From: Pholiota molesta
Lineage: Eukaryota > Basidiomycota > Agaricomycetes > Agaricales > Strophariaceae
NCBI GenBank assembly: GCA_014925825.1
Contig: JACGCK010000001.1
Location: 1,426,001-1,490,000 of the forward strand
Length of the DNA: 64,000 bases
Reading direction: 5' to 3'
The position numbers and the translations under genes were made by a program. Shown here one piece after another: positions 3,287 through 63,669 of this stretch (the first letter of the stretch is position 1; each line of letters begins with the position of its first letter). Under the pieces are notes generated by a model. That model made no database searches, was not told the DNA's origin, and saw nothing but the letters and a program-made list of their open reading frames with translations.

Positions 3287-6248
3287 ATGGCGTCCCTCGT
3301 AATCCATGAACGCGAGCAAGATGATGCTGACATTGAAAGATATTCGAAACGTGCTAAACTAGATGATGAAGCAGCCCGTGAAGAATCACCAGCAAATTCT
3401 GTGGAACATGTCCTCCCACCCAGCCATGCATTGTTGGGGATACCGCTGCCCATAGCTAAAGAAGGCCAGCCTCTGAATTTCCTTGAGGCAGATGTCGGAA
3501 TATCAGAATATGTTGGACGTGGAGAGGCGAAGGTAGAAGGAATTATCAAACAAAGGTCAGTTTGTCATTACGAACACTTCATAAAATTTATGCTAAAAAA
3601 CATTCTAGATTCACCGACTTTTTAGTCTTCGAAGTTGATCAGGATAGTAGAGTTATCCACCTTAAATCTTTAGGAAAACCGGAAACACCCAAGAAAGAAA
3701 AAGAGGAAGATATTCCTGCTCCCACAACACCGATTGCAGTGGAGAACGTTGCAAAATCGGTTGAAGGAGAGACTGAGGAGGCCGCGACTCCGAACATGAA
3801 TGAGGTAGCCGCTGAAGAGACAAACTCGCCCAAAATCCAGGATGTAACTCCCGCAATTCCCGGACTGAAGGTTTCAACCAAGGAAGAACCTTGGCCTGAG
3901 CACTTCGATGCTACATTATTGGCTTTCTTGGACCAGGACAAAGTATCTGAACTCAAGAAAATATTCCTGGAAGGCCCCGAGCCACCCAGGGTAAGCGACT
4001 CTGGATGGGGCGGTCGTGTTCCATCTACAAGCACAGCTGAAGAGCTCACAGCTGTAGAGGAACTCGACATAACAGAGAAACAAGAAGACAAGCTCAAAAG
4101 AGACAATGCGCGTGGCCGTGGCGGCAAACGAGGAGGAAGAGGAGGCCGTGGAGGGGGGCGTGGAGGGGGAAGAGAAGACACTAGAAAAGTTGTATCAGAA
4201 GTAAGTTTCTTCCATTGACACTATACAATATCGTGTTTGTTGACGGGACGAGTCCAGCCCATCACATCCAAAGATACTAGGACTGCATTCCACAAAGCCG
4301 TTCGAGAATTATTCGGAGGAAAGCTTGATACAGAAACAGACGCATCTGGTCCTCCTGAAGAAGGTTCACGCATCCTTATCAAATGGGCCAAACGAGGTGG
4401 TGGTCGGGGCGGTGGTCGAGGTGGCAGGGGAGACGGCTCAGGTGAAAATCAATATAACAACTGATTCTTGATGTTGACTCACTCATACTAATCACAGGAA
4501 CTTCGACCCGTCCTGCTCGTGGCACATATCCGCCTTATATACATTTTACTCTTCAAAAGACGAATCGCGATACCCAAGATGCACTCGGCCATCTATCTCG
4601 CAACCTTCACGTTAACATCAAAGACCTATCGGTCGCAGGGACAAAGGACAAGCGCGGTGTAACCGTGCAACGAGTCTCGTTGAACCGACACAACAAACCG
4701 TTGAAGAAGTATGGAAGCTTGCAAATGGTTTAGGACCCAGGAGAACGCTTGAGGATGTTATGACACAACGAGGCGAGCGAGGGATCCGCATTTCTGATCT
4801 CCAATATCGCAAAGCTGGATTGGAGTTGGGTATGTTGAAAGGGAATGCCTTTGTGATAACATTGAGGTAGATGATATTGCAACCTTTTGCTCGTGAAGTT
4901 TTCTAACAACTCAATTTGATGAAGAAATGTCAAAGTTGCATCAATGGAAATCCTCGATGAAGCAATGAATACCATAAAGTACAAAGGATTTATAAACTAC
5001 TACGGCAAGTTTACTGCTCTGTATGTTTGATTTCTCTCAACTAATTCTATTTGCTTAGGCATGCAACGTTTTGGAACAGCTTCTATCCCAACACATTCGA
5101 TTGGGCTCGCTCTTCTAAAATCAGAATGGCAAAAAGCTGCAGATATGATCCTTTCAAAAAGGCACGGCGAACATCCCGATGTGGAAGCCGCCCGCGATGC
5201 TTGGTTGATAGAACATAATCTCGAAAAAGCCTTGAGTTTGTTCCCAAGGCGTGTTGTTGCGGAGCGTTGTATTCTGGAAAGTTTCAAGAAACAAAAAGGT
5301 GATACACGAAATGTGATGGGGGCACTTTCTACAGTAAGTGCATCCAGAACCCTTGACAAAGCCCTAGCTAATGAACTCTTCTCTCCTTCGTAGATTCCTC
5401 GCAACCTTCGTCTGATGTATATACATGCATACCAGTCATATGTTTGGAATGCTATCGTATCTGAACGCATTCGTACCTATGGAAGTGATCGGCCTGTAGT
5501 TGGAGATCTTGTCTTTGAAACATCTAAAGACAAGGAAGCGATGGATGTAGACGACGAAGAAACACCTGTCCTCGAAAACGATGCGGACGATTCGAGTAAG
5601 TTCATCCTTATTCTCTCATCTCTACATGTACCAAATTGTATGCAGCGCCCTCGAAAAGAAACCGCAAACCATATCAACCACTTCGGACCCGTACTTTGAC
5701 AGAAGAAGACTTGGACAAATACACCATCTTTGATGTTATTATGCCACTGCCAGGTACAGATGTAGCTTACCCTGGTGGAGAGCTCGGAGAACGTTATAAA
5801 CAATTCTTGCGGATGGACGGCTTAGATCCTGACAACTTTCAAAGGAAACAAAAGTGAGAATGGTCGGTCGATGACATGCCTTTCCCGATGTCTGACATAT
5901 TACAACAGAGATTATACTCTTAATGGGTCGTATCGCAAAATTCTTCACCTCCCAAAAGAGATGTCATGGTCTGTATTGCGATACACAGATCCAGACGTCT
6001 CACTGGCTCAATCCGACGAAGACAAACTGCTCGACTTCGACCCCCCTGCGGTAGTCGAGGATGGCAAATTCATGGCTCTCCAAATCAATCTGATCTTGGG
6101 AACGGCGGCGTATGCAACAATGGCATTGCGAGAAATTACGAAGACGGATACCAGTTCTCATTTCCAAACGAGCCTCACAGCGGCAGCGGAAGACCAAAAA
6201 TACAGAGGAGCGGCTACAGCAGACCGGCTGGGCTTCATACTGCTGTGA
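3287..6248 (+). CDS. PUS7: tRNA/mRNA pseudouridine synthase Pus7 (TruD family), one apparent missing base
   Basis: Isomerises uridine to pseudouridine in tRNA, U2 snRNA and other RNAs. The start ATG is at 3287 ([20 protein letters not shown]) and the stop at 6246-6248. The TruD signature with the catalytic aspartate is [14 protein letters not shown] near 4625. Other family segments are [92 protein letters not shown] and [11 protein letters not shown]. Two Arg/Gly-rich boxes are inserted, about 4110-4176 and 4393-4440. Several short introns interrupt it (first about 3555-3609). After RVSLNRHN the frame must move by one base at the AAA of 4695-4697 to continue as [20 protein letters not shown]; as written, translation stops near 4731. 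Read as one Pus7 gene with one base missing in the assembly. Confidence 0.93.
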
Positions 6249-6891
6249 CAGAGGACCAGGCCGAAGTGGACGCTACTGTCGACCCGACACTTTGATGCTG
6301 TGGTGGATTTTTATCATACATACTACTACGAATAGGACTACCGGAGATTTTTTTACCACCACCACGACAGGTGGATAACCATTGGGTTGGGTCTATTTTT
6401 GCGGCCGAAGGGTCAAGGAAGGCGCATGCGGGTACAAGTAGATTTTGATAACGTGGAACCCATGCGAATTTGGTCGAGCCCATGAGAAATCTGTCGAAGT
6501 ACGAGTAAGCTTAAATGTTGTGGGAGCATCAATGGATTGGCATGCTGGGTGGTCCGGTAGTAAAGGTTACCGCAAGGGATGGTACATAGCAAGTACATAG
6601 CTTCATTTTCCAAGGTAGCTTTCCATGAGAATAGATTCAAGCCCGCAATATATTGAAAGACTCGACCTTTCCTAAAAGCTGGTTATGGCGTCGGTGAAAC
6701 CAGGAAAGCCGCGGGGAAGGAGAAACGAATTGGTGCCGGTTCCGGTTCCCAAGAGTGAAGTGTATTCCGCAGCCCGAGCACACAGCCGACGCGAATGGGC
6801 TAACGTGTCCAGGCGTCAAATATAACGGCCATGATCTATAACAGTTTCTAACACAGCGCAAACCTAACGCTCCTTGATCCCTTTCCCTTCA
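6249..6891. other. intergenic region upstream of the MFSD10-like gene
   Basis: Both neighbouring genes are on the + strand. The region holds the 3' end of PUS7 transcription and the promoter of the transporter. Small open frames on both strands show no protein-like composition. A GGTTCC direct doublet lies near 6735-6750. I see no further gene. Confidence 0.5.
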
Positions 6892-8636
6892 ATGGCCAAA
6901 GTCGAAACAATCGTCTTTCTGTCCCTCGTCCTCGACCTTTTTGCATTCACTATCCCTCTTCCTCTGTTTCCTCGCCTCATAGAGTGGTACACACTAGTAA
7001 GTTGCTTCGGACGCGGTACACACTTGTCTATTACTGATTTCGTCCGTAGAGAGAAAGCTCAGATCCTAATGGCTTCTTGTCGCGCACTCTACAATTCGTA
7101 ACGTCGATCAGAACACTGCTCTATAAGCCAGGAGTTCAGTCTCAACGCTGGGATGTCGTATTACTAGGAGGTCTTATGGGCTCGGTCTTCTCGTGAGTAT
7201 CCAAGGAATCATTTGCATCCAAACCCTTGCTCATGTTTCAATAGTACACTGCAGTTTTTTGTCTCGCCCAGAATTGGATCGCTGTCCGACAAGTATGGGC
7301 GTAAACGCATTCTTCTTATTACTATGATTGGGAACATTCTCTCTGCCCTAATGTAAAGCTATCTCATTTGCGCTGGCTGCCTTATTGAATAAAGTTCTTT
7401 GTAGCTGGATACAATCGACCTCTTTTGCGTCTTACATGCTTTCTAGAGTCGTCGGAGGACTTAGTGAAGGGAATGTCCAATTAGCGATGTCAGTATTTCA
7501 ACGCTTGCTTCTGACATGCTATTAATATCTTCAAATGCTTTAGTGCCATCCTTTCCGACGTGACATCGCCAGCCACTCGCTCGAGAGCACTGGCTCATGT
7601 CGGAATTGCCTTCGCGATCTGCTTTTGCATCGGCCCACCCATCGGTGCCTACTTTGCTTCGCGCCCACTACCCAAATCACTAAGTGGCTGGGGCCCGGGA
7701 CTCAACGTTTATGCTGCCCCCGCCATTCTGACTCTAATCCTTCTGGTAGCTGAGACCATCTTCCTCGCGGTGGCCCTTCCAGAAACTAGAGGGAAAGGAG
7801 CTCGCCCAGCGGAAGAGAAACAGAAGGCTGCTCCTCATATGAATGGTAACGGCAAGCACACTGAAGGACCCCCCAAACCAAAGCGCACCATTGAGAGGCG
7901 GCTCACCGTACTCAAGGCTCTTCGAAAATTACATTTCTTCTTCCTGGCCCTCTTTTCGGGTGTTGAATTCACGCTCACTTTCCTCACATTTGACTGTAAG
8001 TTCCATTATCACTACTGCGGACCTACATATATTGATGTGTAATTTCTAGTGCTGGACTGGTCAAACACACAAAATGGAAAATTGATAGGATCCATCGGGA
8101 TTGTAAGTGCCCTCTCCAAGGCGGCTATGTTCGCCGTTCCATGTCCAAAGTTGGAGAGGGCAACATGGCACGAAGGGGTGTGTCAAGTTGCGCAGTTGCA
8201 CTCGTCCTTCTCGCCCTACTCCCGAAGTATGTCCAGACACAGCCCTCGTTTGCAATGAAACTCCTACAGGCCGCTGCGGTCTGCATGGCGTTTACAAGTG
8301 CGACAGTCGTCAACTCTCTGACCGCCTTTGCCTCGTTGCAATGTGATGATGGCCATATCGACGAGGCGACTGGTAAAGTTGTTCAAGAGCATCCCGAACT
8401 CGCAAAAGGAAAAGCGCTTGGAGAGTTCAGATCATCTGGACAATTGGGCCGCGCACTTGGGCCCTTACTAGGTGAGTTGGTTTGGTCCAACTGAATTTGT
8501 GCGCTTGTGCTGATGCGTATCAGCTTGTGCGTCCTACTGGACCTTCGGGCCATCAATTACCTATGGTGTCTCCGCCGTTGCAATGATAGCTTTGTCTAGC
8601 AGCATGAAATCAATAGCTAAAACAGCATCCACTTAA
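6892..8636 (+). CDS. major facilitator superfamily transporter, MFSD10/TetA-like, one apparent missing base
   Basis: Twelve-helix transporter of the MFS. The start ATG is at 6892 (MAKVETIVFLSLVLDLFAFT) and the stop TAA at 8634-8636; at least seven exons. The loop 2-3 signature of the family reads SPRIGSLSDKYGRKRILLIT, followed by SRVVGGLSEGNVQLAIAILS and VGIAFAICFCIGPPIGAYF. These and the later LQGGYVRR segment match the animal MFSD10/TETRAN group better than drug or sugar transporters. A polar cytosolic loop (about 7795-7900) separates the two halves. The last exons end in SYWTFGPSITYGVSAVAM. Between GSIGIVSAL and QGGYVRRSMSK the frame jumps by one base at 8111-8117, so the conserved second half is read only if one base is supplied. 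The substrate is unknown. Confidence 0.88.
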
Positions 8637-8953
8637 TCATGTATCCATTAATCACAATTTATTTATTTAGTATTGACCACTTGGATGTAGTCCATACTGA
8701 TCCGAAAAGAAAACTGGCTTTTTGGTCTTGTATCAACAAAATAGTAAAGTAAGATTGCACTGTCTAGGGCGGGGTAGATTATGGTATCAAATGGGTGTAA
8801 TCACCAAACCCTATGTATCATCCTCTTCACGAATAATAAGTGTTCGATGCTTGAAAGCACCCTAAACCTAAGGGGTACTTGTACTGCTTCGGCCTGCAAG
8901 AAAGAAACAGAACAATGCCAAAGGGGACGTATCTTCCAATAATATGAGGATAC
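8637..8953. other. convergent intergenic region
   Basis: Lies between the 3' end of the + strand transporter and the 3' end of the - strand glycosyltransferase, so it should contain both polyadenylation regions. AT-rich stretches such as AATTTATTTATTTAG (about 8656-8670) fit this. No gene seen. Confidence 0.5.
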
Positions 8954-10583: not shown

Positions 10584-10677
10584 GGCGGAGTGGAGGCAAA
10601 CCCGAAAATCGCACCAATCCATATACTAATTCTACCCGGCTCGGCTTCAGCCGAGCCGCTACATTACGTTACACAGC

Positions 10678-12503: not shown

Positions 12504-14991
12504 TCAACTAGATGGTGCAGCCAACGCCATCTTTTTTAGGGGGGGTGTGCCGTTGGGCGCTTCAGGTACGTTGGAATCACCGTGCTCAACCTTACGCTTA
12601 GTTCCAATAACCTTAGACTCCTGTGTAGGAGATAGCGACGGCGATCTTGATTTGGAAACCCTCATGTGCGCCGGCGGCGATGGTGTCGCCCGGATGGTCA
12701 AAGGTACATTTGATACTGGATGAATTTCAGGGGTGGCTGATCGACTGCCATGGGTCTTTTCACTCCGTAATCTTGCCGCAAGAGTACTCGTGGAAGTTAT
12801 GGCCTCCGCGAAACACGTAGCGTGATAGATCTAATCAGAAGTATGAGAAATGAGCCAAACAACTAGAAATAACAACATACCTTATCGTCCTTCTTAGTTG
12901 CGTTTTTCCATACCCACTCTTCGTCGTCTTCTAGGAATTCTGACTTGAGAATCTCTTTACAAATGGGGCACGATACAAGCTGAGCCTCATCGCCAGGAGG
13001 AACAATAACGTATTGTGCTCGCAATGTGGCTTCCCGTTTAGCAGTCTCAGCAACCACATCAGCTTTTGTAGTCCTAGAGTTGGGACCATCCGTAGGCACA
13101 TGGCCCTTGCTGTCGCTCGAAATTTCTTGAATCCAATCCTATCAAACACGTCAAAATTTTACTTCGATTCTGAGGAAAGATGCACGCACGTCAAGTCCAA
13201 CGAACCAGCTACGATTGTGACCCCTGTCGATGTTTTCATTGGCTTTACGATTTTGTCTAAAATGCATATCGAGGTGATCATCCTGGTTTTTCTTCCCAAG
13301 CGGCGTGTCAGCGAAACGAACACCACATTGTTTACATTGCAAGCCCTGGCGGTCATAAAGAAGTTCTACGATACGGGACGATCTGTCGAAGAAAATCATT
13401 AGCAAAAGTAGATGAAACGAGTTAATGTATCGATAAGTACCGAATTGAATCGAGAGAATTTAAGTTGATACTCTCCGATAAAATAGTGTTTCTATACTCT
13501 CGGATAATTGCTTCAGCTGGATCGACTTCTTTCGGAACATCTACGATTGTTGCTTTTTCATCCGCCGTAGCACCTGCACCGGTGGGGGTCGCACTCGCCG
13601 AAACAACGCCAGCTTTTAGAAGAGTTGAAAGAAGATTGGCAATGTTGTCGGGTGGAACAGTGTAGGTTCCACTGCTACAGGCTTTACGTTAGCGCCGACT
13701 GAATTGAAGGTGAATCTTCGAGTTTGACGGCAGAAGGGGGTCGCTGATAGGGCATCTGAGGGGGAAAGGGGGTTGAGGATGCCAGGTAGGTGCGGGTATT
13801 GGAGGTTGGGGTATAGGCGGTGGTATCGTACTCTTAGCCATATTCCGCAACTGTGACAAGATTTGCTGAAGCTCTTCTTGGGATACTCCTGCTTCTACGT
13901 GCAACCGAAGCTATTAAATCCAATGAATACCAAGTTAAAGAGACATGAGCTTGAATTCGCTGACCTGATGTAGAATAGCTATATGGGTTTGTGATGTTGA
14001 GTCGTAGGGGTTAGCTTGAAGGGCGCGTTCTTTCTGACCAAGAGTGAATTGCAGTTCACTTAGAACCTGGGATTTTGTGATCACACCAGAACCGGAGTAG
14101 AAATTTGTACTCGACTGTAAATGAAGTTTGAGATAGAATATTCAGAAGCTAAAATAAAAAAGAACATACCGATCCCGTCGCACCTCCACCCCATACTCCT
14201 CTCTCGATACTTATCTGTTGTGATACCCCAAATAGCTCTTTACCTGTAGGCGACCCCGTCCTCCAAGTCAAAAGCATTTCTTCCATTTTCCCTCTTGTAT
14301 TGTCATCGACGACAGGATAAGTCTCAAGAAACAGAGAGACAACAAAGGAAGAGAACTGGCGTGCATAGGGGTCATAAACATTCTTCGAGATGGCGTCGAG
14401 AAGATAAAAGGCGGGAGCTTCATCCACGGAGGAACCTATGTACATGACCAAAAATAGAAAATGATGAGTCAGCAATCCGCGGGATGTGTGGGAACATAAT
14501 ACGAAAGAGAATTTGTGAGGCAAAACGACAGAGATTTTTTAGAGGCGACGGGCCATCCTCTCAGGCGTCTGTTTCTCAAATGGGTACTGGTACACTAAAT
14601 ACATAGTAACAAAACCGCCACGTAGAGATTCAACTAAATCGTAGCCGCGTACTCCTTGTCTTCACAGAATGATATCAGGGGATGCATTAAGAACATGACT
14701 CACCCTACGGATATGGGCTTCAAGGCATTGCGCCACAATACCTGCGTAACGCGCACCATCTTGAGCCATCATCGACAGTTGTTGAATTGCGGGCCTTGAA
14801 TTGAATGTGAGTTCAGAGAGGCGAGTACTGAAGTCCCTGCGAAAGCTATCGGCGTCAACTTGGTAAGTGGGTGGGGCTGCGGGCTGCGGAATGGGTTGCG
14901 AGTAATAGTGGTATCCACTTGTTGGTGGGGAAGAATAGCTGGCACCACCGTACGATGGTTGACCGTACAAATGATTAGTGTATAGAGACAT
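12504..14991 (-). CDS. PCF11: Pcf11-like mRNA 3'-end cleavage factor with CID and zinc fingers, one apparent missing base
   Basis: Subunit of cleavage factor IA; links the RNA polymerase II C-terminal domain to cleavage and termination. The start is ATG 14991 (MSLYTNHLYGQPSYGG) and the stop TGA at 12504-12506. The N-terminal CTD-interacting domain reads FRRDFSTRLSELTFNSRPAI, then KNVYDPYARQFSSFVVSLFL. A central Gln/Pro-rich part follows, then a Cys2 finger (LQCKQCGVRF, HLDMHFRQNRK), NRSWFVGLDDW, and a second finger (VSCPICKEI ... YHATCF). The tail is Ser/Pro-rich with RKVEHG and LKKMALA. Inside the CID the exon reads VPPWMKLP and then AFYLLDAISKN only after a one-base shift at the GGG of 14413-14415 (+ strand). 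It diverges from RPL9. Confidence 0.88.
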
Positions 14992-17790: not shown

Positions 17791-20321
17791 ATGTTCTGGT
17801 CAAAATGCCGGTTCAGAGCCATTCACATACCATCTCTCCTTCGTCTATATGCGACGCAGGCCGCCCATGATCCTTCGAAAATACGGAATATGGCTCTCGT
17901 AGCTCATATCGGTACGCCCAAATGACCATCTTGCTAAATCCTTTTTCTGAACTCTCATTAGATTCCGGCAAAACGACTTTGACCGAATCAATCCTCCTAA
18001 AGTCTTCTTATATTTCAGCCTCTGGCACCGTTGACACTGGCAGCACTACCACGGACTTTCTCCCTGTAGAACGCGAGCGTGGTATAACAGTACAATCAGC
18101 AAGCATTCCTGTGCAATGGAAAGACTGGGTCTTCAATCTTGTCGATACCCCAGGACACGCCGACTTCGGAATGGAGGTCGAAAGTGCTAGTCGTGTCGTT
18201 GATGGTGCCGTTGTTCTTATTGACTCCGTCGAAGGAGTAGAATCTCAGACAAAAGGTGTATGGAGGCAACTGGATAGGTGCGTGAAATAGGTGAGATAAT
18301 TGAGGCAAATTCAGACCATATCTAAAATTCTTTATAGATATGGGGTTGGCAGCCGAATTGTATTCCTCAATAAACTGGACAGACCTGGCGCATCCTTCAA
18401 GTCAGCGTTACAATCTTTGCTCAAACACCGTCTACACCCCAATCCTATGCCTTTGACACTTCCCATTGCTTCTTTCAATCCAAAGCACTATGCTGAAGGT
18501 GAACCTGGAATACACGGGTTGGTTGACCTGGTCAGATGGAATGTATGGAAATGGGATGAAGAAGGCAAGGCTTCGTATTTTCCTTTGCCCCGCGATATCG
18601 AAGAGCTTGAGATGACGGACGTTCTGCCAACCTCACATCCGCTTTTGCGCCATCTGTTACCTGCGCGCACCCAACTTCTCGAAAATCTTTCTATGGTCTC
18701 AGAGGAATTCATGGAATCATTGCTAAGCATGCCCACTGATCCATCGGCATATTTGAAGATCGACAGTGCAATTATCCTGCGACACCTTCGACAAGCCTCT
18801 TTGCAAAACCAAGTGCTGCCAGTTTTATGCGGGGCGGCAATGAAGCATGTTGGGACTGACATAGTCATGGACTATGTCGGGGAACTTCTCCCAAGTCCAC
18901 TAGACGTCGTACATGATGTGCAACGAAATAATACACCTGTTCGGCTTCTGGCTTGGAAGGTGAACTGGGACGATAGGAGGGGTTGGATGACTTTGTTCGG
19001 GTCTATTCTGGTAAAGTTGCATTATATCCCTGCAATAACCAATCGACTAATATTTGAATATTTTTCAGGGAAACTAACTCGCCAAAGCGCATTATTGAAC
19101 ACGAATCGCAACCAGAAGGAGAAAGTAGCCAAATTGCTTCTCTTATACGCCTCTGAGGCGAAAGAGGTTGACGAACTTCCTTTCGGATCTATTGGCGTTA
19201 TCCTGGGCCTCAAATATACGCGCACAGGAGATACCCTTGTCCAGGCAGGTGTATCGGAATCCTTCCAATCGGTCATGCGCGACATTACCCCCCCACCAGC
19301 CGTAATATCAGCATCTGTCATTCCCCAGTCACACAGTGATCTGCAGCCTGTCCAAGATGCATTGGAGTCTTTATCCCGTACAGATCCTTCCCTTAGAACA
19401 GACATACAGGAGGGACAGATCTTGGTGCATGGTCTGGGCGCTTTGCATCTTGAAATTGTGGAAGGTCGGTTGCGAGACGAGTGGAAAGTCAACTTCGAGC
19501 TTGGTCGAAGATACGTCAGCTATCGGGAAGCCTTAGGACCTATGGAACCATCTGAGGGATGGAATGTCTGGGAGACGGAAGTCGGAGGGAAATTTATCCA
19601 GCTTAAGATGCCCATCCAGATTCGTCCGCTTGGGTCAGAGGAGAAAGGCGACCCAGTCTGGGATGGCAATTTAGTCCTTGACGATAAAGGCAGGCCTGTA
19701 GGCTCTCCGGAATCGATGCCGGGTTCTCTGGTCGGATATGCTGCTGAAGGTGTCCTCAACGCGCTTTCCAACTCTCCGCATTCATCTCTTCCGATGACTA
19801 ACGTGCATATTACAATCGGGAACATGAAGGAGGTCGGCATCAAAACTCCTACACTTATAACAAGAGCTGCAGCTGCCACAGTTCGAACCCGAATACGACA
19901 AGCTGGAATAGGTGCTATTCTCGAACCATTCGTCTTCCTCAAGATCTCAGTCACCGAGAGCAGTCTGGGTAGAATCGTCAAAGACCTGACGGAACATGGC
20001 GGCGAAGTTCTTGAACTCGGAGACGGCTCAAGTGGGATAGAAGGCAGTGATGACTTATTAGGATATCCGGATGATGGTATATATTCTCCTCCAGAGTGGT
20101 TGTCTCCTTCTGGATCTCCGGATTCCCTCTCCCGCTTTTCTAATTCTCATGTCAAGCGCTCTGTGCAAGGCGTTGCTCCCTTGAGTCAATTTTTGGACTA
20201 TTCCACTAGAATACGCTCTCTATCCGAAGGACATGGTCTTTTTGAGCTTTCAGGTGCAGGTTTTAGAGAGGTATCTGAAGAGCGCAAACTGGAAATTCTG
20301 CGGGAGATTGGTAGAGCTTGA
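17791..20321 (+). CDS. MEF2: mitochondrial ribosome-recycling GTPase EF-G2/Mef2, one apparent missing base
   Basis: Mitochondrial translation GTPase that splits ribosomes after termination. The chosen start, ATG 17791, gives a typical presequence (MFWSKCRFRAIHIPSLLRLY). The G motifs are ALVAHIDSGKTTLTESIL (first intron falls inside HI/D), RERGITVQSASIP, LVDTPGHADFGMEVE and VFLNKLDRPGASFK. EF-G domains III-V follow (IQEGQILVHGLGALHLEIVE, KTPTLITRAAAATVRTRI, PFVFLKISVTE). In domain II the conserved FVRVYSG lies in a different frame from WDDRRGWMT just before it; one base is missing at TTT 18992-18994. A 58-nt intron (19011-19068) follows. Because of the missing base, the genomic frame runs open through this intron, so automated models may keep about 19 intron-coded residues. 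Confidence 0.93.
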
Positions 20322-25200: not shown

Positions 25201-25600
25201 CGATATCCCTTCGGCATTCTGTTGCAAGGGACCGAAGGATGGATAATGAAATGAGAAGGGAACTATATACACATTGAATAAGTAAATAATCCGTGAATAA
25301 GTTGGACCACTTACGCTCGCGAACGAATATTACCCGACTTCGCTTTGCGACATTCTCCCTTCAAACGCTTGTCTAATTCGCTCCCAATTTTTGCCATTTT
25401 TCAGGATGATTCGAACTAGACAAAGACAGAGTAAATAAGTCAAGGTTGGAGCAGGGAAGGTCTCGGCCATACGCATAGTATGTCAGCCGACTTAGTTCAT
25501 GAGAATTGGGAGAATAGTCAGGACCAGCGGTGAGCAAAGCAGATGTGGGTGGATAGCACGAGTTGAGGAGTTTCACGTGATTTGGAGTGAACAACTGCAT
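22282..25600 (-). CDS. EFR3: EFR3-like plasma membrane scaffold for PI4-kinase, one apparent missing base
   Basis: Efr3 anchors the Stt4/PI4KIIIalpha complex at the plasma membrane. The start is ATG 25600 (MQLFTPNHVKLLNSCYPPTS) and the stop TGA at 22282-22284. The N-terminal exon continues NSHELSRLTYYA; after an intron comes SNHPEK and then MAKIGSELDK, matching the P-E-K-x-x-x-I-G-S block of the family. PEK and MAKIGS are in different frames: one base is missing in the T run 25397-25401 or the one at 25388-25392. Helical-repeat exons follow (FTAWTTYTNGHLIGADSSMT, RTRLIGLAALTAALNSEALY, LRPIMVILFETSISLLDDQ), then a Ser/Arg-rich middle (SIERPPDERPSRRTRVH) and the C-terminus GEVRDVLTRLGISKQNGNLL. 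Seven or more exons. Confidence 0.87.
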
Positions 25601-46402: not shown

Positions 46403-46850
46403 TCAGAGGACTTTCAAAGAAGCAGGGTTGAATGGATATTCTTTCACCCTTTCTTCCATCATATCGTCAAGACATGCCTGCCAGCAAGGAATGTATCTTT
46501 CAGAGTCCCAAATCCTTTGGAAGAGCGTAGTATCGGCATTGATTCCCACCTCAGATGGAAGCCTCGGTGTAACAATTTCGGGGGCTGTGGGCGCTTATTG
46601 ATGCGGCTGAACCATGTCCTCAACTCTCCTCTCAGTTGTAAGTGTTCTTGCCTCTCAAGCCCACATTCAAAATCCTTATCTAACGTTCTGCGTTTACTTG
46701 CTCAGTGCCAACTCAGTGCTGAACCAGAATACATTAACGGACATCACCAAAAAGGTTAGAGCCGGCGCTGCCAGCCACAACAACTGTAACCAACACCACA
46801 CTGTTTCAAACGAGTCGAGACCTTTGGAGACTTCTTAGAGTTATTCTGTC
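46403..46850 (-). CDS. small uncalled protein gene, start unplaced, one apparent missing base
   Basis: The - strand encodes a coherent protein that open-frame prediction misses. Working from the stop TGA at 46403-46405 upwards: DSERYIPCWQACLDDMMEER then VKEYPFNPASLKVL at the end, preceded by APTAPEIVTPRLPSEVGINA. One base earlier in frame is GELRTWFSRINK, then a short intron (GTAAAC...ACTGAG) and a hydrophobic exon (VWCWLQLLWLAAPALTFLVM, SVNVFWFSTELALSK). Joining INK to APTAPE needs one extra base near 46592-46599, the same direction as the other shifts. The first exon and start were not found; MSVNVFWF at 46744 is a possible internal start. I do not recognise the family. One membrane helix plus a soluble C-terminus is the visible layout. 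Confidence 0.55.
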
Positions 46851-48203: not shown

Positions 48204-49750
48204 TCACAGCAAACCGGCTTCTTGAAGATCGCGCTGTAATCGTCGCTCATTCGCAAATGCTCTAACAATTGCTCGATTCCGTTGAGGATCGCCATTTGGG
48301 TCCAGCGGAATCATTGGTTGGGTCTCTTCGGAATGAGAACCTGCATCTCCTTCTTCAGCACGAGAGACTGCCCTGGTGCTTGGATCATCGGCGCGACGTC
48401 TCCCACCGAATCCAAATCCTTGATATAAATCCGCGCGTGAAAGGCCGCGAAGTCCAAAAGAGTTTCCGAGAATACCAGGATTGGTCTGAGGCGCAGACGC
48501 AGCGGCCGTTTCTCTCGAAGCGATGATACCGCGTTCCCATCGTTTTACACGCCAGAATCCGAGTAGCGAGGTCAGTAAAACAAACCATCCTTTGGTTGGT
48601 TAGATATATACATTGGGAAATTTGATTATAGAAGGCTTACCGACTGTCATTAAAAAGAAAGACAACCACTCCGTTGTAGCAGCCGAAACCATGATGGTGG
48701 CTTGACCCTCCGTCACATTATTGCTCGCAGAAGTGTTCCATGATATATTTCCAATATGATGATGCGTGTTATGGCCTTCGTTCTCAGAACTGGGATCTGA
48801 ATTCCAATCACTCCATTCCTGAGTTCCATCACTGGAATCAGTGGAATCAAGGCGACTACGCAATGCAAATCCATATTGGATGAGTGTGACACCGAGACCA
48901 GCTCTTGAGCCAAGACGAGCGGCGTGACTTGTGTGTAAAAGATACGTCAGAAGGAAACCAATGAACTGGAAAGAAACGGAGACGAGGAGATTCCAGCAGA
49001 AAGAGAAGAGGGAGCCTGTTGGCAGAGAGTCGATAACCATTTCCCCTATCGAATCCGGAGAAAAGGGGGCGTGCACTGTTGTTTCCCAGTAAGGAGGAAC
49101 TGCATCTGCTTGGGCAGAAGCATATGAAGGTGGGGCTTCTTGCCTTGCATCTTCAGGAACAAGGTATGAATCGTCGTCTTATAGATACGGTGGGCTTAAG
49201 TAGTGACATCATCACAGAAGATATACAAAGCACATACCATTAAGCACTCTAACAGGCGCAGTAGGCTTTGCAGTTACATTAGCAAAAACTCCGTCATTAT
49301 TTGTGCCGCCACCTATAGGACCTGTTGGTCGTTGCGGGGCCAGACCAATCTTGCTCCAGAAACTTGATGGCAACACTGCTGAAGCTGCGCGTTGAAACCA
49401 CATGCGTTGGGGGCCGCGATTCTCCAGCGGCCTGAAGACAGGAATTTGACCATTGGTATTTCCGTGTTCGTTTGGAAGAGCAGTAGCCGAGGGGGCTGGC
49501 GGAGAGCCAGGGGGTGGATAGTCGTAATCGACGGCTTCGAAATTATAGCTTCCGAGAACATGGGCAGGTGGGTGTTGTGCCAAACTAGGAGAGGTCTGTG
49601 TAGGATTCAGAGGATGAGATTCCGTTGCATTATGCTCCTCGTCCTCATCGTCTGAATAATCGAATGCAGCCTGCATTTCGACCTCCCTATCATGCTGTGT
49701 CGCCTGATGTTCTGGACTGGATTTGGGAGAGGCGCATAACGATGAGCCAT
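48204..49750 (-). CDS. BSD2: BSD2/NDFIP-like adaptor of Rsp5/Nedd4 ubiquitin ligase, apparent missing base near the start
   Basis: Golgi/endosome membrane adaptor that recruits Rsp5 to sort metal transporters and other cargo. The stop TGA is at 48204-48206. A PPxY-type motif (EAPPSYASAQ) precedes three helices: LFSFCWNLLVSVSFQFIGFL, ARLGSRAGLGVTLIQYGFAL and TEWLSFFLMTVG/GWFVLLT (split by an intron), the DUF2370 arrangement. The tail has GLRGLSRADLYQGFGFGGRR and RNRAIVRAFANERRL. At the N-terminus ATG 49750 gives MAHRYAPLPN, a start usual for the family, but the following acidic segment (EMQAAFDYSDDEDEE) is in the next frame. One base seems missing at the AAA/CCC runs near 49722-49727 (TTTGGG on the + strand). 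Without it, initiation would have to be at 49676. A splice acceptor upstream suggests an intron in the 5' leader. Confidence 0.82.
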
Positions 49751-50409: not shown

Positions 50410-50963
50410 TTATTGATGATGAAGAGTCGCCCGATTAGCTTCTCTAATCAGCTTGTTGATTCTTTGGCAGCTCTCCAATCTGGTTTCCATCATCTTGTCA
50501 AACATCTCCAGAATTTGTTTCCTTGGACGAAGCTCGTCGCAGTGCTGTATTTCGCCTATTGGCTGAGCATCAACCACGCGCTTGGCTCGAATGTCATCGA
50601 TTCTCAACTTGAATCCCTTTTTGCGTCGCGCCCAACGGCTAGCTAGGGGATCCTGGGGATTGCCTCCGGGATCATTGCACCTGTCGTATGATAGACCGTT
50701 CTTTGCTTTAGAACTCGGAGATGACAAATGATGGTCGGAGTACACAATATTGGGGATTCCATGGTCGAAGGAGTGGAAAAAGCATCATTGAGAACTGCCT
50801 GTGTACGATATACCCACATCCGTTCCTGCTGATAAAACGCCACGAGGCTGTCTAGAAGATTTATCGTGGAATTCAATGGGTTTTCGATATTTCCATCCGG
50901 CATTTTATAGTTTTGTGGGGAGAACGGCGGGGTGGGCATGGAATGAGCAAATGTTGTGGCCAT
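50410..50963 (-). CDS. small conserved-looking protein of unknown function, one apparent missing base
   Basis: Two overlapping - strand frames make one sensible protein. The first (from MATTFAHSMPTPPFSPQNYK at 50963) reads NPLNSTINLLDSLVAFYQQE, RMWVYRTQAVLNDAFSTPST and MESP. The second continues NIVYSDHHLSSPSSKAKNG, SRWARRKKGFKLRIDDI and LEMFDKMMETRLESCQRINK to the stop at 50410. The switch lies at the GGGG run 50752-50755 (+ strand) and needs one added base. The basic KGFKLRIDD and helical MMETRLESCQRINKL segments suggest a small regulatory or structural protein; the family is not recognised. It diverges from EMC10 with about 110 bp between the starts. Confidence 0.6.
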
Positions 50964-52280: not shown

Positions 52281-52297
52281 CTTCGCTACTTTGTAAT

Positions 52298-54614
52298 TTA
52301 ATCATCGTTAGTCCACACCTTCTGCATCTGTTTCTTGAAGGGTTCCAGCGTGAATTCAAGGGCAGAACAAGGGAATCCTATTTCGAATTTCTCCAAGACA
52401 CTTGGGTGGAGAATTCCCAATGATCCAATGCCAGATCACTTGCCCCGATGGGCGAGGTTTGTCCTTTTGAGGGCGCTACTCGGTAGAAGATCGTGGCCGC
52501 ACGTCCGGGAAAATACATAGCGTCTAAGATATGGTTACAAATTAGAGAAACAGGTGTGGTGTAGAAGCTCGCGAACTTACCTTGGGTTTCTCTAATATAA
52601 TAACCCGTCAGCGCTTTCGAAGCAGCACTTCCGATTGGAGGTACCTCCAACATCTTCATGGCACGATCCAGCATACCATGAACAATCTCGAAGCCAGCAG
52701 TCTTGTTACACCATACTGCCGCAGCATGCCTCTCGTTGCGCGCCTGACGTTCTCGTGAGACATCCTTGAAAACAACTTCGGATGTCTCGAAAATCTTGAT
52801 GGGTAGGGCATGCGATCGATTTTCGCGGATAGTCTTGAGGAGACCTGGAATAAGAGTGGTCCGGACCACTTGGAACTCGAGTGTTTTGGGATTTGCGATC
52901 TTGACGACCGTGTTTCCATCGTCAATGTGGTTTAGCCATTCAAAATTCTCTTCGTGCGAACACTAATGTGGAGGATGTCAGTAATTAATACGAATATAGT
53001 CGTATTGACTTACAAGGATGAGAGAGAGAACCTCAACCCAGCCAGCATATGCCCATTCACGGCGAATTACGTCGCTTAGCTTGCTGATAGCTAGCGGTTG
53101 CGCGACAGTGCTCGTGGTTGGGAATTTATCAGGAAGATTATTGAATCCATATGCAATAGCAGCATCCTCCATGATATCGCACTCGTGGAAGATATCCGGC
53201 CTAGTTGCTGGGACATGGACCAAAATCTCGTCTGAGTTGGATGCAGAAACAGAAGCAGACAAAGCCATGCGAGTCAGAAGAGTAGACACCTCTTGCGAGG
53301 TGAGTCCAAGGCCCGTGCACGAATTGATATACGAAGTGTGGGCTGTCATTTGAAAGCCTGAAAGATCTGGTGTAATGCGTGTTTGACCATTGGGTAATAT
53401 AACTTTAACAGGCTCGATTCTAAAATAAAGATCAGTAAGCAGAGTTTAAATAACATTCCATTGCGACCTACGTGAACGGTTCTGCGCAATATTCAGAGAA
53501 CATGGTAGCTACCATGTTCACGACAATGTCAAGCTTTGTCTGATCTGTAGCTGTAACATCGATGAAAACATTGCGAGTGTTCAAGGTAATCTTGCTGTGA
53601 TTCGAATTGATGATAGGAGGCATTGAAAGAACCTGATCGTTTGAGTCGTAGATGATAGGGTAAACCGGAGAGTCGCGGATGATATGTAAGTACTTTGCCA
53701 GATGTTTTTCGGACTGGTAGGGGGTTAGAGGTGAAAATTGAACATATCAATAAACATACCTCATAAAGGGCCATGAGTTCCTCTGCAGTGTATGATGTAT
53801 CTTTGCCCAAAGGCGCAAACTTGATGTCCTTGGGAGGCCTTGCTTCGTAACGGAAAGGAGGCTTCAAGGTATCTAAATCGTGGGTTCCAATAGCAACAAG
53901 TTGTCGGCGTCTGCAAATATTTTGATGCAGCTTATCTTGCAAGTCAATGAAAGATGCATAAGAGCTGGGAGTGAAGGTTATGTTGCGCAAGATAGCGCAT
54001 GCAAAGAGAGGCCTGATTCTTGACGTCTTATATAACCTTGAGAGAAGTATCAAAGAAGACCGTCAAGGAACGTACCTCTGGATCGATTTTGACGGTAAGT
54101 AGATCTGCTTCTCCGCCTGGAGGATAGACGGTTTTATATTCTGGCGCTGGTGATAGTTGGAGGAAGGTGCGAAGTGCACGAGCGATGCCTTCGATGCACA
54201 GCAAATCGTATCTAACACAATCTAGTCAGCGCATAAATAGTCTCTGGTTAGGAAGGAAGCGCGCCTATTGGCAGGGATCTCTATTTTCAATTGCTGTCGG
54301 AAGATGAGCCCCAGGAACAGACATGTAGGTGGTAAATATTACTCACTGGACGTTCCGCCGGCAAGCCTTTCTTTATGGCCTCCTCTACTTCTGCAGTTGT
54401 CTGCAATAAATTTAGCCAAATCATCGTATTAATCGTAAGCCTACTTACATCTTCGTCCAATTCCAGTCCATAGTCGAAGCACAGTTTATCGAATTCCTCC
54501 GTGGCTGCCGAGAAGTTGAGACGATAATCAACATAAAATAGAGGTACTTGACCTACTATACTCTTTCCCGAGGCGCTCCCAGAGATCAGCCTTATCTACT
54601 GCAACAGTCGGCAT
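52298..54614 (-). CDS. FRS1: cytosolic phenylalanyl-tRNA synthetase beta subunit, one apparent missing base
   Basis: Non-catalytic, editing subunit of PheRS. The start is ATG 54614 ([20 protein letters not shown]) and the stop TAA at 52298-52300. The B1/B5 parts include [80 protein letters not shown] and FNNLP. The B6/B7 class II-like core has [40 protein letters not shown] and [13 protein letters not shown], then [16 protein letters not shown]. Just after [13 protein letters not shown] the conserved ending [34 protein letters not shown] is in the next frame; one base is missing near 52431-52432. As written the frame ends early, around 52378, with an unrelated tail. PheRS is essential, so a real break is unlikely. 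Confidence 0.93.
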
Positions 54615-54783: not shown

Positions 54784-57463
54784 ATGCAGTATCTCGCCCT
54801 TCTTAGTGGCGGAAAAGACAGTTGCTACAATCTTGTACATTGTGAACAAAACGGTCATGAGCTTGTTGCCGCAGCATCTTTAGGACCAGAGCCTGGCAAA
54901 GGTCCGGAAGAAAACCATCCACGCTACTTTACCTTCTCATCCTTTCATAGAGGAACTTGATTCGTATCTCTACCAGACTGTTGGGCAAGATGCAATTGAA
55001 CTTGTTGCACAGGCACTAGATGTTCCTCTATATCGTCGAGTCATTACCGGAAATGCTGTGGAACAAGGAACTGAATATGGTGGAAGAAATCCGTCATCTT
55101 CTGGCGGTGTTCTGGGCGACGAAACGGAAGACTTGTATGAATTGCTCGCCACAGTGAAGGTGATTTTATGCGCGTCTTCTGAAGAAATCTCACTGAAACC
55201 GAAGCAGGCGCATCATCCAAACGTTAAAGGCGTATCAGTTGGCGCAATCCTTTCCAATTATCAGCGAGTGAGGGTAGAGCATGTGTAAGCAAAACTTGGG
55301 GTCGTAAGACCAGTGGACTCAAATGACATGTCAAACAGGTGTCGCCGATTAAATCTGACCCCACTATGCTTTCTCTGGCAAAGAGACCAAGCAGAACTAC
55401 TTTCTGAGATGATCGACTCGGGAATGGACGCTATTTTGATCAAGGTTGCAGGCATCGGTCTAACGACATCCCATCTCGGAAAAGGTCTTTCTCAAATGAA
55501 ACAAACGTTATTTAAACTAGTGAGTCGTAATTAGGATAGGATGAAAGAAAGAAATTGAGTGTTTACTCTTTAGAATACTCTTTATGGCTCTCACATATGT
55601 GGCGAAGGTGGTGAATATGAAACGTTAACGTTGGATTGCCCGCTTTTCAAACGCCGAATCGTCATGTATGAAGACCCATGTTCATTAAACTTATTTAGCA
55701 ATGGCTAACAATCCTTCATCAGCACAGAAACAGAGACAGTTATCCATTCGGATAATGACTTTGCAACAGTTGCTTTTCTTCGTATCAAGAGCGCAGAACT
55801 CGAAATAAAGTCCACGACAGCAGGGTCCGCTGCTACTCCACCTCTACTAGACGAAGAGCATGAAACGATTCGGAATTCCATTTCAACCTTGGAAAAAAAC
55901 TCCGAGAGAGGTTCAAGAATAGTGTCTTTGAGCGCTTTGGATTTCCATTGGCCCAATATGAAGTTATCGAGTAGCCGGCGAAAGGGCCCATGGGTTGCTA
56001 TATCTAACATACAAATAACTACCCCTGAAACTCCAATCACGATCGAGGAAGAGGTTTCTCAGTGCTTCCATATCCTGACGGGTGAGCAACTATTTTGGCC
56101 TCTCGAAGTTCCTTTCATTTCGCTAATACGGCCCCGCAAAGAATGTCTCGTCGAACACAGTCTGCAACTTACTCAAATCGCCATCATCAATATATTTATC
56201 TCGTCTATGGATCTATTCTTGCGTATAAACGCCGTCTATGCGAAATTCTTTGGGGTCAGTCCGCCTGCCCGTGCTTGCGTTGGTATTGATCTTCCCGATG
56301 GGATACGCGTGAGGCTTGAATGTATCGCTTTCGCTGAAAGGACATCCTTCGATCGACAATCGCTTCATGTGCAAGGTTTGAGCTATTGGGCGCCAGCTAA
56401 CATTGGGCCGTATTCTCAAGCTATCACGGTCTGTCAGGATTCTCAAAAATTGTTTACTTTCAAAGTCTCAACAATCATATAGGTCGGCGAACGTGTCTTC
56501 ATATCCGGCCAAATAGGATTGATACCCAGTCGATTGTCCCTTCCTTCACCTCGATCATTGGCGACAGAAATGGCTCTAGCGTCTCAGCATGTAGCTCGTG
56601 TCGTCAGTGCCATTAAAGAGAACTCAGGAGGAGGATGGGATGGCTATACGCAGTTGTCCATTTATTGGCTAAGCCATCTGGATCATCTGGATCATGTGAA
56701 GAAAGGACATTTTTCTGTGCAGGTCAGTGTCTCTATTCTCTACTTGGCGCCTCCTCGAGTTCAAATTTTGTCCGGATTGTAGACCATCTCTCGTTCCCCT
56801 ACGCTGTTTCTGGTTGTCAAGGAACTTCCGAAAGATGCTCTCGTCGAAAAGCAGGTCATTGTTCATACAGGCAGGTGCCGAGTTATCGATGAATACGACG
56901 GTGAGGAAACAATTGAAAAAAGGAGCCCGACATACGAAGAAGGTCAGTGATGCATAAGGTGATGACCACAAGAATATGTTCTAACAAGTTAGCATAGGTG
57001 ATGACGTTTTCAGTAGCGATCGTGCGTTGCATTGGGAAGTATCGCGATTTATAGAAGACGGTGCAGCGAGTGCAATACTATTCGTTAAAGGAGGTGAGTT
57101 TAAGGAACAGATTTATGCCATGGAAAGGTCTCGTTGAAGGCTTTCTGTTAGACTTTGTAGGTTCCATCTCAGAGTTTACACATGCCATTTCGGGCCTTTC
57201 ATCTGTTTTGGAATCAACACTCTCTATGAGGTTCTTTTACACTCCTACTTACGCAAGTGTCACTTTCAGTAAGTCTGCAATCACCCAAGATTTGAGATCA
57301 ACACTGATGCGATTGTGCAGTTGATGAGCTAGGCAGTTCTCTCTTCGCAGATCAGGGCATTCCCCCAGTTACTCCTATACCATGTAAAATAATCTCCAGT
57401 ACTTCCCGAGATGACTGGGATCTGGCGCTCTGTCTCGTCGCTTCATCAACTATTCCACCATAG
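54784..57463 (+). CDS. DPH6: diphthine-ammonia ligase Dph6 with RidA-like C-terminal domains
   Basis: Performs the last, ATP-dependent amidation of diphthamide on elongation factor 2. The start ATG is at 54784: MQYLALLSGGKDSCYNLVHC with the PP-loop SGGKDS at residues 8-13. Next come GHELVAAASLGPE, DAIELVAQALDVPLYRRVI, NVKGVSVGAILSNYQRVRVE, LCFLWQRDQAELLSEMI, VAGIGLTTSHLGK and the family motif GSHICGEGGEYETLTLDCP. Two RidA/YjgF-like domains follow: IINIFISSMDLFLRINAVYA with PARACVGIDLPDGIRVRLEC, and WAPANIGPYSQAI, VGERVFISGQIGLIPS. The last exons end IPP, stop TAG at 57461-57463. The multidomain layout is as in yeast Dph6. Exon joins were in frame where I followed them. Confidence 0.92.
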
Positions 57464-57700
57464 CAAAAACATAAATCGATTTTATATTCCTATAGATGAT
57501 GATCACTTGAAATGTACCCAACAGAAAGAAAAAGAATACAACGTCCTCGGAAGTTAGATAACCATTAAATGAGAATGTGAGGTATGATACATCACGAACA
57601 AGTCATGAATGAAAAGCGGGGTCAGCGAAAGCACAATGATGAGGGTCTGATAGAGGATTCTAAAGACGATGTAGCATGGATGGTCATATATAATGAGATA

Positions 57701-60228: not shown

Positions 60229-60663
60229 GGTACTTCAGAAAGAGGAGACGTGGTCCTCTGCTGGATGGTCGAAGGCAGTCGACATGCGGTTTGTTGGCTC
60301 GCCACTTATGTATAGCTTGCCCGATCCAGTATTACTTCACCACATTAATATGACGACGGCACTTCCCGGCTCTTACTGCACACATAGAAATCTCAAGTAG
60401 AAATTGGGTCCGTCGTCTAATGAACAACTGTGTAGTACAAGTCATCCCTATAGAACTCGATTCAAACACTACATTCAACAAGACCACAAGAAATCTAGAA
60501 ATACAAGGATAAATATATGGCGGACCAGGGCGTAGAGCGCCCCAGCGCAAGCAGGCAATTGTACACAAAGAGAACAAGATTGCACAGAAATGGTAAACAT
60601 ACAGTGAACTGGTGGTACAGGTCAAGTGCACAATCAACAATTGGAGGATGCAAACTCCAAGCA
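60229..60663. other. intergenic region between transporter and ankyrin genes
   Basis: Both neighbours are on the - strand. The region should hold the transporter promoter and the 3' end of the ankyrin gene. Small open frames on both strands show no conserved character. Confidence 0.45.
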
Positions 60664-62580
60664 TCACGAACCCCTAGCGGAAGTCGCAGACATCCCTCGC
60701 CGATGACTTGATGATGCCGATGCCTCAAATGTTTGTAGAGGCTTTGAAAGTATATGAAATGCTTTCCGACGTCCATTAGTTGGAGTAGTGTTGACGCTGT
60801 CTGCGTTAGCCCCGTTTACTGGTGGTGGCTCGGGAAACTGAGCATATTGGCTAGGTGGTCCCACATAAGATTCGGTTGAATCGTCAAATGACATTCTATC
60901 CACACTTGCTATTGATCGCAATGATTTTGAGGTAGACGATGACCTTGTGAGCAATGGAGAAGGTACTCCGCGTACGTTGCTTGGACTGGTCCCTGATCGC
61001 AATCGCGTTTCTGGTTGGGGAATTACGCTTCCCGTAGTGGAAGAATTCGATATTTGTGTTCTGAGCTGTGCAGCTGATACGGAAGGACGAAGCCGTCGCG
61101 GTGTTATCGTCCCACTCATCAGTGCTGTGATGTCATCGCCATTGGATGAGGGTCCAGCTGATGCAAAGTGAGAGCCATTTATTGACTTGGTGTCCGTTGA
61201 AGCAGTGCCCTGACTACCACTTCTATTTCGGTTCATGTATTTCTCCATAGCGTCGGCATCCCGTTCTCGCATGCGATTTGCTATTGGAGAGAGGGCGGAG
61301 GCAGGATTGGAAGGGGCTGCCAAAGATGAACCTTTCGAAGGTCCGGTAGGAGGAGCAAGGGTTGAGCCATGATGGGAGGAAGGAGGTTGGAAGAAGCCAG
61401 AACTTGAGCCAGTGGACGGCTGAGAGGGAGACGAGGATAACTGCCCTGTAATCAAATGGTCTGGATCACCACTGTCGGACGTTGCTGTCGTACGACTTGT
61501 GCCAGATCCACTCCTTAGCCTAGAAGAATTGCTGCGATCCTTGGCCGGAACTGGGAGGGCATTGGGTATATGAATGGGTCCACCCCATTCACTTCCCCTA
61601 GAAGCTGCTTGAGCTGCTTGAGCAAAAATATTACGTCGCTGCTTCTTGTTGTTTTCAAATTGTGTCCTAGCTGTCTCTTGGAGGGTCTCTCGGGTGCTGA
61701 ACGAGTACGCATAATCCGATGCAGTGAAGCCTTCGTTGTTTCTGGCAGAATATTGGCATCCCCTCTCTATTAGCAATTGGACGGTCTATGTAGAATTTTA
61801 TTAGATAAACAAAACAATAGATTTTATGTGACAAACTAACCGGTATGTGGCCCCAGGAACTTGCACTATTAACTATGAGCATGACGTAGAAACACATTTC
61901 TATAAAAAGTCGACTCACTAATGAAGAGGTGTGTTTCCCTTGTTGTCCGATAAATCGAAGTCTGCACCGAGGTCACACAGCATCTAAGTTAAAATTATCA
62001 GCACTGCCCAGGATCATATACGCTGTTGAGGACATACTCGGACTAATTCCTCATTCCCTTTAAGGGCAGCAATATGAAGAGCTGTCTTCCCATGCATATT
62101 GGACCAATCCAGAACCCAGGAATAACGTTCATAGTATAACCGCGCCATACGAAGGTAAGCGCCAGAGTTATCTTCTGTTTCCGCCGATATATACGAGGTA
62201 GATGAAACAGGTTTTTGATCCGCAAGTAGCATGAGGATCGTGTTGTTTTCGGAATCCTGCGGAAACTCATTAGCAAGATGTACGCCGGGTTAGTGTAATG
62301 GACATACCTTGCTCAATTCCTCATCATCGTGGCCAGCGGCCAGGAGAAATTCAAATGTTTCCTCGTGGCCAAGCACAGCCGCCCATGCTAGAGAAGTGTA
62401 GCGCTTGGGGGACGTGTCAGGATTGCGCATATCCGTTCGCTGGATTAGGCGTTTGACGAGGAAAAGGTTATTTTCTGCAATTGTTATATCGTCAAAGCAC
62501 TGGTTACTGGGCATAAGCGCAAGTAGGAATATACCTTTAACGGCTCTTCGCAGTCGGGCGGTGGCATCTTTCTCGGCCAT
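60664..62580 (-). CDS. ankyrin-repeat protein, AVO2-like (TORC2-associated type)
   Basis: The start ATG 62580 (MAEKDATARLRRAVKENNLF, with an intron inside) gives the classic opening of fungal Avo2-type proteins; the stop is TGA 60664-60666. Ankyrin repeats are LFLVKRLIQRTDMRNPD, YTSLAWAAVLGHEETFEFLL, GKTALHIAALKGNEELVRML and LSDNKGNTPLHYASSWGHIP with TVQLLIERG. A short coiled region (QETARTQFENNKKQRRNIFA) follows, then about 330 residues of Ser/Pro/Thr-rich disorder with many SP and RS sites (likely phosphorylated). Yeast Avo2 is a non-essential TORC2 subunit; the assignment is by repeat sequence and layout, and a general ankyrin adaptor is the alternative. The ATG at 62724 in the same frame adds a Cys/His/Ser-rich leader and is less likely. 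Confidence 0.82.
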
Positions 62581-63001
62581 GGAGGCAGAGATTTGGCAGA
62601 GAGAACAGTGGGAATGGAGGACAAAGAGCGATGAGCATGTACAGCTTTCACAACTGCCCAAGTGGCCAGAATGACGAGAGAGGCAAGTCCGGGCACGTGA
62701 CTGAGAACACCGCTTTCGGTGCACGATAATGTAATTAAATTTAAATTTAATATTACTTCAAAAGGCTTACTGCAAGTTTATTTACTGGATTCTACGCACA
62801 AATAATTAGCACGCTTAGGGGGTAATATCTCTGAGTTATAGGGAATTATACTAGGCTTCACATTTTCAGTCTTTTCAGAGCCACTACCAGAAGGCATCGC
62901 CACGAGATGAGGCGGCGCGGAATACAGATCAAGGCACCCACGGCTACCGCCAGCCCTTGCGCACTGCCACATTTGGCTCTCACTGATTCACATATCCTTG
63001 A
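62581..63001. promoter_or_regulatory. divergent promoter region of the AVO2-like and STEEP1-like genes
   Basis: 421 bp between the divergent starts. It contains an AT-rich palindrome-like tract (about 62728-62752, TTAAATTTAAATTTAA). No gene supported; the ATG at 62907 opens a frame that is not the conserved one. Confidence 0.45.
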
Positions 63002-63669
63002 ATGCCTAAAGTCGTTTCCAGATCAGCCGTCTCGTCGTCAACAGACGGTAGGTATATTCTCTTCATCAAGGGCAATAAATATTAACGCGTCTTCAACTTG
63101 TAGCGCAGCCCACTGCCAGCTCTGCGGCAGCGTTACGCGTTTACTGTGGGTGTCAAGGCATTTTCATTCTACATTGCGCCCGTTCTGACAATAGCTGATA
63201 TATAGACTGCATATGTGGCGAGTTCATCGTGAGTATGCCTTTTAGCAGATATCAGCATAGGTCTGACTATCTCTTAAACAGCTTGTTATTGATAAAAGCC
63301 TGGCTACTTTGCCACGTCGTAAGACAGACAACGCCATTATCGTTCGTTCAAAAGAGAGTGCTGCGGGAAAGCCGAGAGTTTTCAAGTTGAACGCTGTGGC
63401 GGAGGAACCGATCCTGTTGGAAAGGTACGCACTGAACCCCCAATGGGTATTGCCCATTGCATAGGAACTTACACCTATCAAACAATCAGACTGGGCGGGC
63501 ATGAAAAACAATATCGATATCATTGCCCTAGATGTTTACTAAAGATTGGATATCAGACATCACCACCCCCGTTAAATCCGCGCCTTTCCTTTACATTTTC
63601 TCAGGTGCTCTGACCCAAATGCAAGGACAAGTTCCACAAGACGCTTTCGATGGAGAGAACGACTTGTAA
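63002..63669 (+). CDS. STEEP1/UPF0428 family protein, one apparent missing base
   Basis: Homologue of the animal STING ER-exit protein, a small zinc-binding protein conserved beyond animals. Exons 63002-63047, 63104-63145, 63206-63228, 63282-63424 and 63490-63669 join to MPKVVSRSAVSSSTD, LRVYYCICGEFILVIDKSLA, TLPRRKTDNAIIV, KPRVFKLNAVAEEPILLERL and GGHEKQYRYHCPRCLLKIGY. The pairs CICGE and CPRC are the expected metal ligands. After YQTSPPP the frame shifts at the CCCCC run 63566-63570. Only with one more base does it continue VKSAPFLYIFSGALTQMQGQ to the stop at 63667-63669. The start MPKVVSRS equals the family N-terminus. Its role in fungi is unknown; animal STEEP1 acts in ER-to-Golgi traffic of STING. 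Confidence 0.88.

What the first reader, a model, noticed from the sequence alone, without database searches (positions are those of the whole stretch)
4600..63600. Recurrent one-direction reading-frame breaks in conserved genes
In PUS7, the MFSD10-like gene, PCF11, MEF2, EFR3, BSD2, FRS1 and STEEP1 (plus three small unidentified genes) the conserved protein continues in a neighbouring frame inside an exon. In every case the ribosome would have to re-read one base, i.e. one base is missing, mostly at or beside a run of 2-5 identical bases. Genes with no break (URA3, RPL9, STE14, FPGS, KAP120, FRS2, DPH6) show that the frame assignments are not random. The simplest cause is under-called homopolymers in the assembly. 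Programmed -1 frameshifting across many unrelated essential genes would be unprecedented, and most sites do not look like X-XXY-YYZ slippery heptamers.
Basis: partly seen in the sequence, partly recalled or inferred. Interest (0 to 1): 0.8.

Follow-up and report, generated by a model that had tools for sequence, protein, structure and literature searches.

The report
Dropped bases in a mushroom assembly
Several ordinary genes in this mushroom genome look broken because the published assembly has lost single DNA bases here and there, not because the fungus reads its genes in an unusual way.

Summary
The breaks are in the printed sequence but are best explained as assembly errors. The window is contig C1 of a 65.6 Mb Pholiota molesta assembly: a public gene model of that species sits on a contig of exactly C1's length. 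Six of ten listed breaks have homolog, domain or second-copy support (PUS7, PCF11, MEF2, the 50752 gene, FRS1, STEEP1); three (MFSD10, EFR3, BSD2) rest partly on my reading; one (46595) found no homolog. All nine step the frame by -1.

Contig C462 is a second copy of window 53795-64000 and beyond. Elsewhere, the two copies of a valyl-tRNA-synthetase-like gene (C489, C625) are each one base short at a different homopolymer, each intact where the other is broken. LYS2 on C594 has two in-exon breaks. Programmed frameshifting does not fit: one of nine sites has an in-frame slippery heptamer, and breaks are not shared between copies. No reads were available.

The parts
4690..4705 (+). PUS7 (TruD family): one base short in an exon
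   Evidence: TruD profile 41-97 and 107-136 in two frames, second weak; frame step -1; PDB match for the upstream frame, nothing relevant for the downstream frame
8105..8120 (+). MFSD10-like MFS gene: one base short
   Evidence: MFS_1 matches upstream ORF 7515-8039 and, below cut-off, the downstream frame 8036-8491; the short piece between gave no match; frame step -1
14405..14420 (-). PCF11 CID: one base short
   Evidence: yeast PCF11 aligns from the frame change onward; CID match below cut-off; frame step -1
18988..18996 (+). MEF2 / mitochondrial EF-G2: one base short a few codons before an intron
   Evidence: alignment with intact relatives; frame step -1; no second copy found
25394..25404 (-). 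EFR3: one base short at a run of five A
   Evidence: direct reading plus a weak upstream EFR3 profile match, E=0.057; downstream piece found nothing; coordinates
46590..46600 (+). putative small gene, break not confirmed
   Evidence: no homolog found
49718..49730 (-). BSD2/NDFIP-like gene: one base short near the start codon
   Evidence: NEDD4_Bsd2 domain found in another ORF, 48603-49178; the two pieces at the break found nothing; frame step -1
50748..50756 (-). small conserved gene: one base short at a run of four C
   Evidence: P0121 is continuous; public P. molesta model P0127 (BJ912DRAFT_940239) leaves the stretch at the break out
52425..52436 (-). FRS1 (PheRS beta): one base short near the C terminus
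63566..63570 (+). STEEP1: one base short in a C run relative to second copy C462
53795..64000 (+). stretch that also exists as contig C462 (99.3% and 99.6% identical blocks), with its own single-base losses
55709..57460 (+). DPH6 exons (my reading), intact here; C462 lacks six single bases in them
   Evidence: Ribonuc_L-PSP match; Diphthami_syn_2 in 54884-55285 below cut-off

Best explanation
The frame breaks are residual single-base deletion errors in an assembly of Pholiota molesta that holds two copies (haplotypes) of part of the genome. They favour homopolymer runs and hit coding and non-coding sequence alike. Shown: a second contig has one more base than C1 at the STEEP1 break and misses other bases that C1 has; two copies of a synthetase gene are each one base short at different places. 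Inferred: the same cause at the other eight sites, and that an uncorrected long-read consensus produced them. No record seen here names the sequencing platform.
For: C1 versus C462: 24 indels in the 16.2 kb block, 18 single-base; C462 lacks 15, C1 lacks 3. In the first 11.9 kb, 15 of 16 indels are single-base. In nine other haplotype pairs (ten blocks, 24,652 columns) 41 of 105 indels are single-base, with 655 substitutions; at that ratio 51 substitutions predict 3.2 and 15 were seen, p = 1.4e-6. 8 of 15 lie in runs of four or more, which hold 4.5% of bases, p = 8e-8 (7 of 15 under the alignment). C1 lacking 3 in about 17 kb scales to about 11 per 64 kb, near the 9-10 listed. C462 has six losses in exons assigned to DPH6. 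A valyl-tRNA-synthetase-like gene: C489 is broken in HLTG-EMPF where C625 is intact, and C625 is broken in PSPP-NVTGSLHIGHAL where C489 is intact. LYS2 on C594 has two in-exon breaks. Intact relatives exist for MEF2 and the 50752 gene.
Against: No raw reads or RNA were available. C1 and C462 look like different haplotypes (C462 carries an extra insertion), so some single-base differences may be real polymorphism; one of the 15 (67862) sits in a patch with several longer indels. Only one of the ten listed sites lies in the duplicated stretch. 4 or 5 of 15 losses are not in homopolymers. The ACC central domain on C333 showed no in-exon break, so the rate varies or the sample is small.
Confidence: 0.98

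Rival explanations
1. Real heterozygous frameshift alleles: the two nuclei of the dikaryon carry different broken genes and complement one another.
For: The assembly holds two copies of many loci; C1 and C462 differ by substitutions, 37 transitions to 18 transversions, and by a 1,134-base insertion, so they are distinct copies.
Against: Both copies of a valyl-tRNA-synthetase-like gene are broken, each elsewhere, so neither nucleus would have a working one unless a further copy exists. Six single-base losses in one DPH6 copy, the homopolymer bias and the excess of length-1 indels fit errors.
Confidence: 0.007
2. Programmed -1 ribosomal frameshifting across many genes.
For: All nine steps are -1 (EFR3 by hand from it); BSD2 has an in-frame CCCAAAT.
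Against: Eight of nine sites lack an in-frame slippery heptamer; STEEP1 needs no shift on C462, and DPH6 would need six shifts on C462 but none on C1; relatives are intact at the two sites compared in full; losses also lie outside readable exons.
Confidence: 0.003
3. Mis-read introns: alternative splicing restores the frame at each site.
For: The public model P0127 leaves out the stretch at the 50752 break, which implies a predicted intron there.
Against: P0121, the closest relative, keeps the residues that this model drops (more distant relatives vary there); at STEEP1 the second copy shows that a base is missing.
Confidence: 0.007

Closest known systems
Residual indel errors of long-read assemblies (fungal example: Drechmeria coniospora nanopore-only assemblies, PMC7500977, passages read)
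   Same: Homopolymer length errors alter reading frames of conserved genes; some errors are present in one genome only; similarity-based completeness scores overlook them.
   Different: There polishing introduced more insertions than deletions; here the differences are mostly losses. Here the evidence is a second copy in the same assembly, not short-read polishing.
Programmed -1 ribosomal frameshifting (recalled)
   Same: The downstream frame is -1.
   Different: No shared slippery signal, and not shared between two copies of the same genes.

Membership tests
Assembly single-base deletion errors | the missing base is present in another copy of the locus | tested here: met
   STEEP1 in C462; synthetase copies C489 and C625, reciprocally. 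For other listed sites no second copy was found among the scored candidates (in 18 and 19 one candidate was not scored) and 20001-40000 was not scored at all
Assembly single-base deletion errors | affects coding and non-coding sequence alike | tested here: met
   differences at 57533, 57642 and 62818 lie outside exons by my reading of the ORFs
Assembly single-base deletion errors | homopolymer enrichment | tested here: met
   8 of 15 in runs of four or more against 4.5% of bases; 7 of 15 under the alternative alignment
Assembly single-base deletion errors | accurate reads carry the base | not testable with these tools
   no reads held
Programmed -1 frameshifting | in-frame slippery heptamer X XXY YYZ | tested here: not met
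   1 of 9 sites, searched from -18 to +12 around the listed position
Programmed -1 frameshifting | site conserved in relatives and in other copies | tested here: not met
   intact relatives at MEF2 and 50752; STEEP1 not broken there in C462
Programmed -1 frameshifting | stimulatory RNA structure downstream | not tested
   not pursued after the copy comparison

The most novel reading that the evidence does not exclude
The two nuclei of the dikaryon carry reciprocal, genuinely frame-broken alleles of many housekeeping genes and survive by complementation.
Probability: 0.005. Interest if true: 0.8.

Novelty: not a real feature. Interest (0 to 1): 0.08.

Why it matters
It has no biological novelty, but it is a caution for users of the public P. 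molesta proteome: a gene model built on this assembly drops a stretch at the break, as at 50752. LYS2 is broken in this assembly, and a paper (PMC8779187, passages) found the P. molesta enzyme's tree position chaotic and hypothesised horizontal transfer; a damaged gene model is a simpler possibility that I did not test.

Tried and rejected
A search for a second copy of the MEF2 region found only itself. Window 1-20000 matched elsewhere only at 10728-11711 and near 9128-9167 among the 2 of 3 candidates scored. The search with 20001-40000 was not scored and not repeated, so a second copy of EFR3 is neither shown nor excluded. Rfam found nothing in the window and ARAGORN no tRNA, so RNA genes in the window could not serve as a control. 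Homologs for 46595: none. PDB searches for the PUS7 and EFR3 downstream pieces found nothing relevant. The genome paper I recalled is not held; of the five papers naming P. molesta (listing) I read passages of two, and found no platform. ACC_central on C333 gave three pieces with gaps that look like introns and no in-exon break, a result against a uniform rate. In the haplotype control ten pairs were given; blocks under 400 columns or 92% identity were dropped, which removed pair L027/L032 whole. Locus L061 coordinates printed are wrong (strand not handled) and were not used; one search replaces them.

Full report
What the window is. It is G000:C1:1426001-1490000 of an assembly of 65,580,286 bases in 625 contigs. 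C1 is 1,610,084 bases long. The public protein BJ912DRAFT_940239 of Pholiota molesta (P0127) lies on a contig of exactly that length. A paper gives accession GCA_014925825.1 and, in a garbled sentence, 66 Mb for P. molesta (PMC11856836, passages). The organism is therefore very probably Pholiota molesta, an agaric of the Strophariaceae. The assembly seems to hold two haplotypes at many tRNA loci.

The observation. The protein continues in the -1 frame at nine of the ten listed positions (eight; EFR3 by hand from coordinates there). Support is strong for MEF2, the 50752 gene, FRS1 and STEEP1, good for PCF11 and moderate for PUS7. For MFSD10, EFR3 and BSD2 at least one side of the break has no database match. 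MFSD10 is helped by an MFS_1 match in the preceding ORF, whose frame carries over an ordinary intron by my reading. Site 46595 found no homolog.

The decisive comparison. Contig C462 (18,273 bases) is a second copy of window 53795-64000 and about 7 kb beyond. It is a distinct copy: it carries a 1,134-base insertion with inverted ends (TGGGCCCC[A/G]GCAAC) and a short flanking duplication. At the flagged STEEP1 site C462 has one more base than C1. Conversely C462 lacks 15 single bases that C1 has, against 3 lacking in C1. A recoding signal should not be needed six times in one copy and never in the other.

Statistics. In the first 11.9 kb, 15 of 16 indels are one base long. Nine other haplotype pairs give 41 of 105, with 655 substitutions in 24,652 aligned columns (shorter or less similar blocks dropped). 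Scaled to 51 substitutions that predicts 3.2 single-base indels, p = 1.4e-6. 8 of 15 lie in runs of at least four, which make up 4.5% of bases, or 7 of 15 under the longer alignment. C1's own rate, 3 in about 17 kb, scales to about 11 per 64 kb; with three events the uncertainty is wide.

Beyond the window. A tRNA-synt_1 gene, valyl-tRNA-synthetase-like by its NVTGSLHIGHAL motif (name recalled), lies on C489 and C625. C489 is one base short of a run of five and changes frame inside HLTG-EMPF, where C625 reads on; C625 is one base short of a run of six and changes frame inside PSPP-NVTGSLHIGHAL, where C489 reads on. Neither printed copy is whole, which also speaks against real complementing alleles. 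LYS2 on C594 shows two in-exon frame changes, one inside the ADDQVKIRGFRIELGEID stretch. ACC_central on C333 showed none. A metagenome protein identical to MEF2 after the intron (P0016) starts with residues that imply one more T in the intron than the window has; that is inferred from protein letters only.

Consequence for annotation. The public model P0127 keeps the upstream frame of the 50752 gene, drops a stretch at the break that the closest relative P0121 keeps, rejoins, and diverges again later. A paper on fungal nanopore-only assemblies describes homopolymer errors altering frames, and completeness scores that overlook them and do not exclude improbably short introns (PMC7500977, passages). 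PMC12007338 (passages) states that long-read errors are predominantly homopolymer-associated indels.

Verdict. These are assembly errors. Programmed frameshifting fails on slippery sites (1 of 9) and on sharing between copies. Real complementary alleles remain formally open because no reads were available. I lowered that rival from 2% to under 1% after and raised the main explanation from 0.97 to 0.98.

Noticed in passing
C462 (L047) 942-2075, absent from C1 near window 54735: A 1,134-base insertion with similar inverted ends (TGGGCCCC[A/G]GCAAC), a short flanking duplication and no reading frame above 77 aa: looks like a non-autonomous DNA transposon present in one copy only.
   Followed up: partly
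G000:C594:86574-90828 (L052): LYS2 has at least two in-exon one-base breaks; a published tree oddity for P. molesta alpha-aminoadipate reductase (PMC8779187, passages) may stem from this.
   Followed up: partly
L060 (C489) and L061 (C625): Two copies of a valyl-tRNA-synthetase-like gene, each one base short at a different homopolymer.
   Followed up: yes
window 10728-11711: Gene or repeat with further copies at about 92-96% identity on C85 and C322; no Pfam match for ORF 10681-11160.
   Followed up: no
window 19040-19070: MEF2 intron poly-T run appears one T shorter than implied by metagenome protein P0016; inferred from protein letters only.
   Followed up: partly
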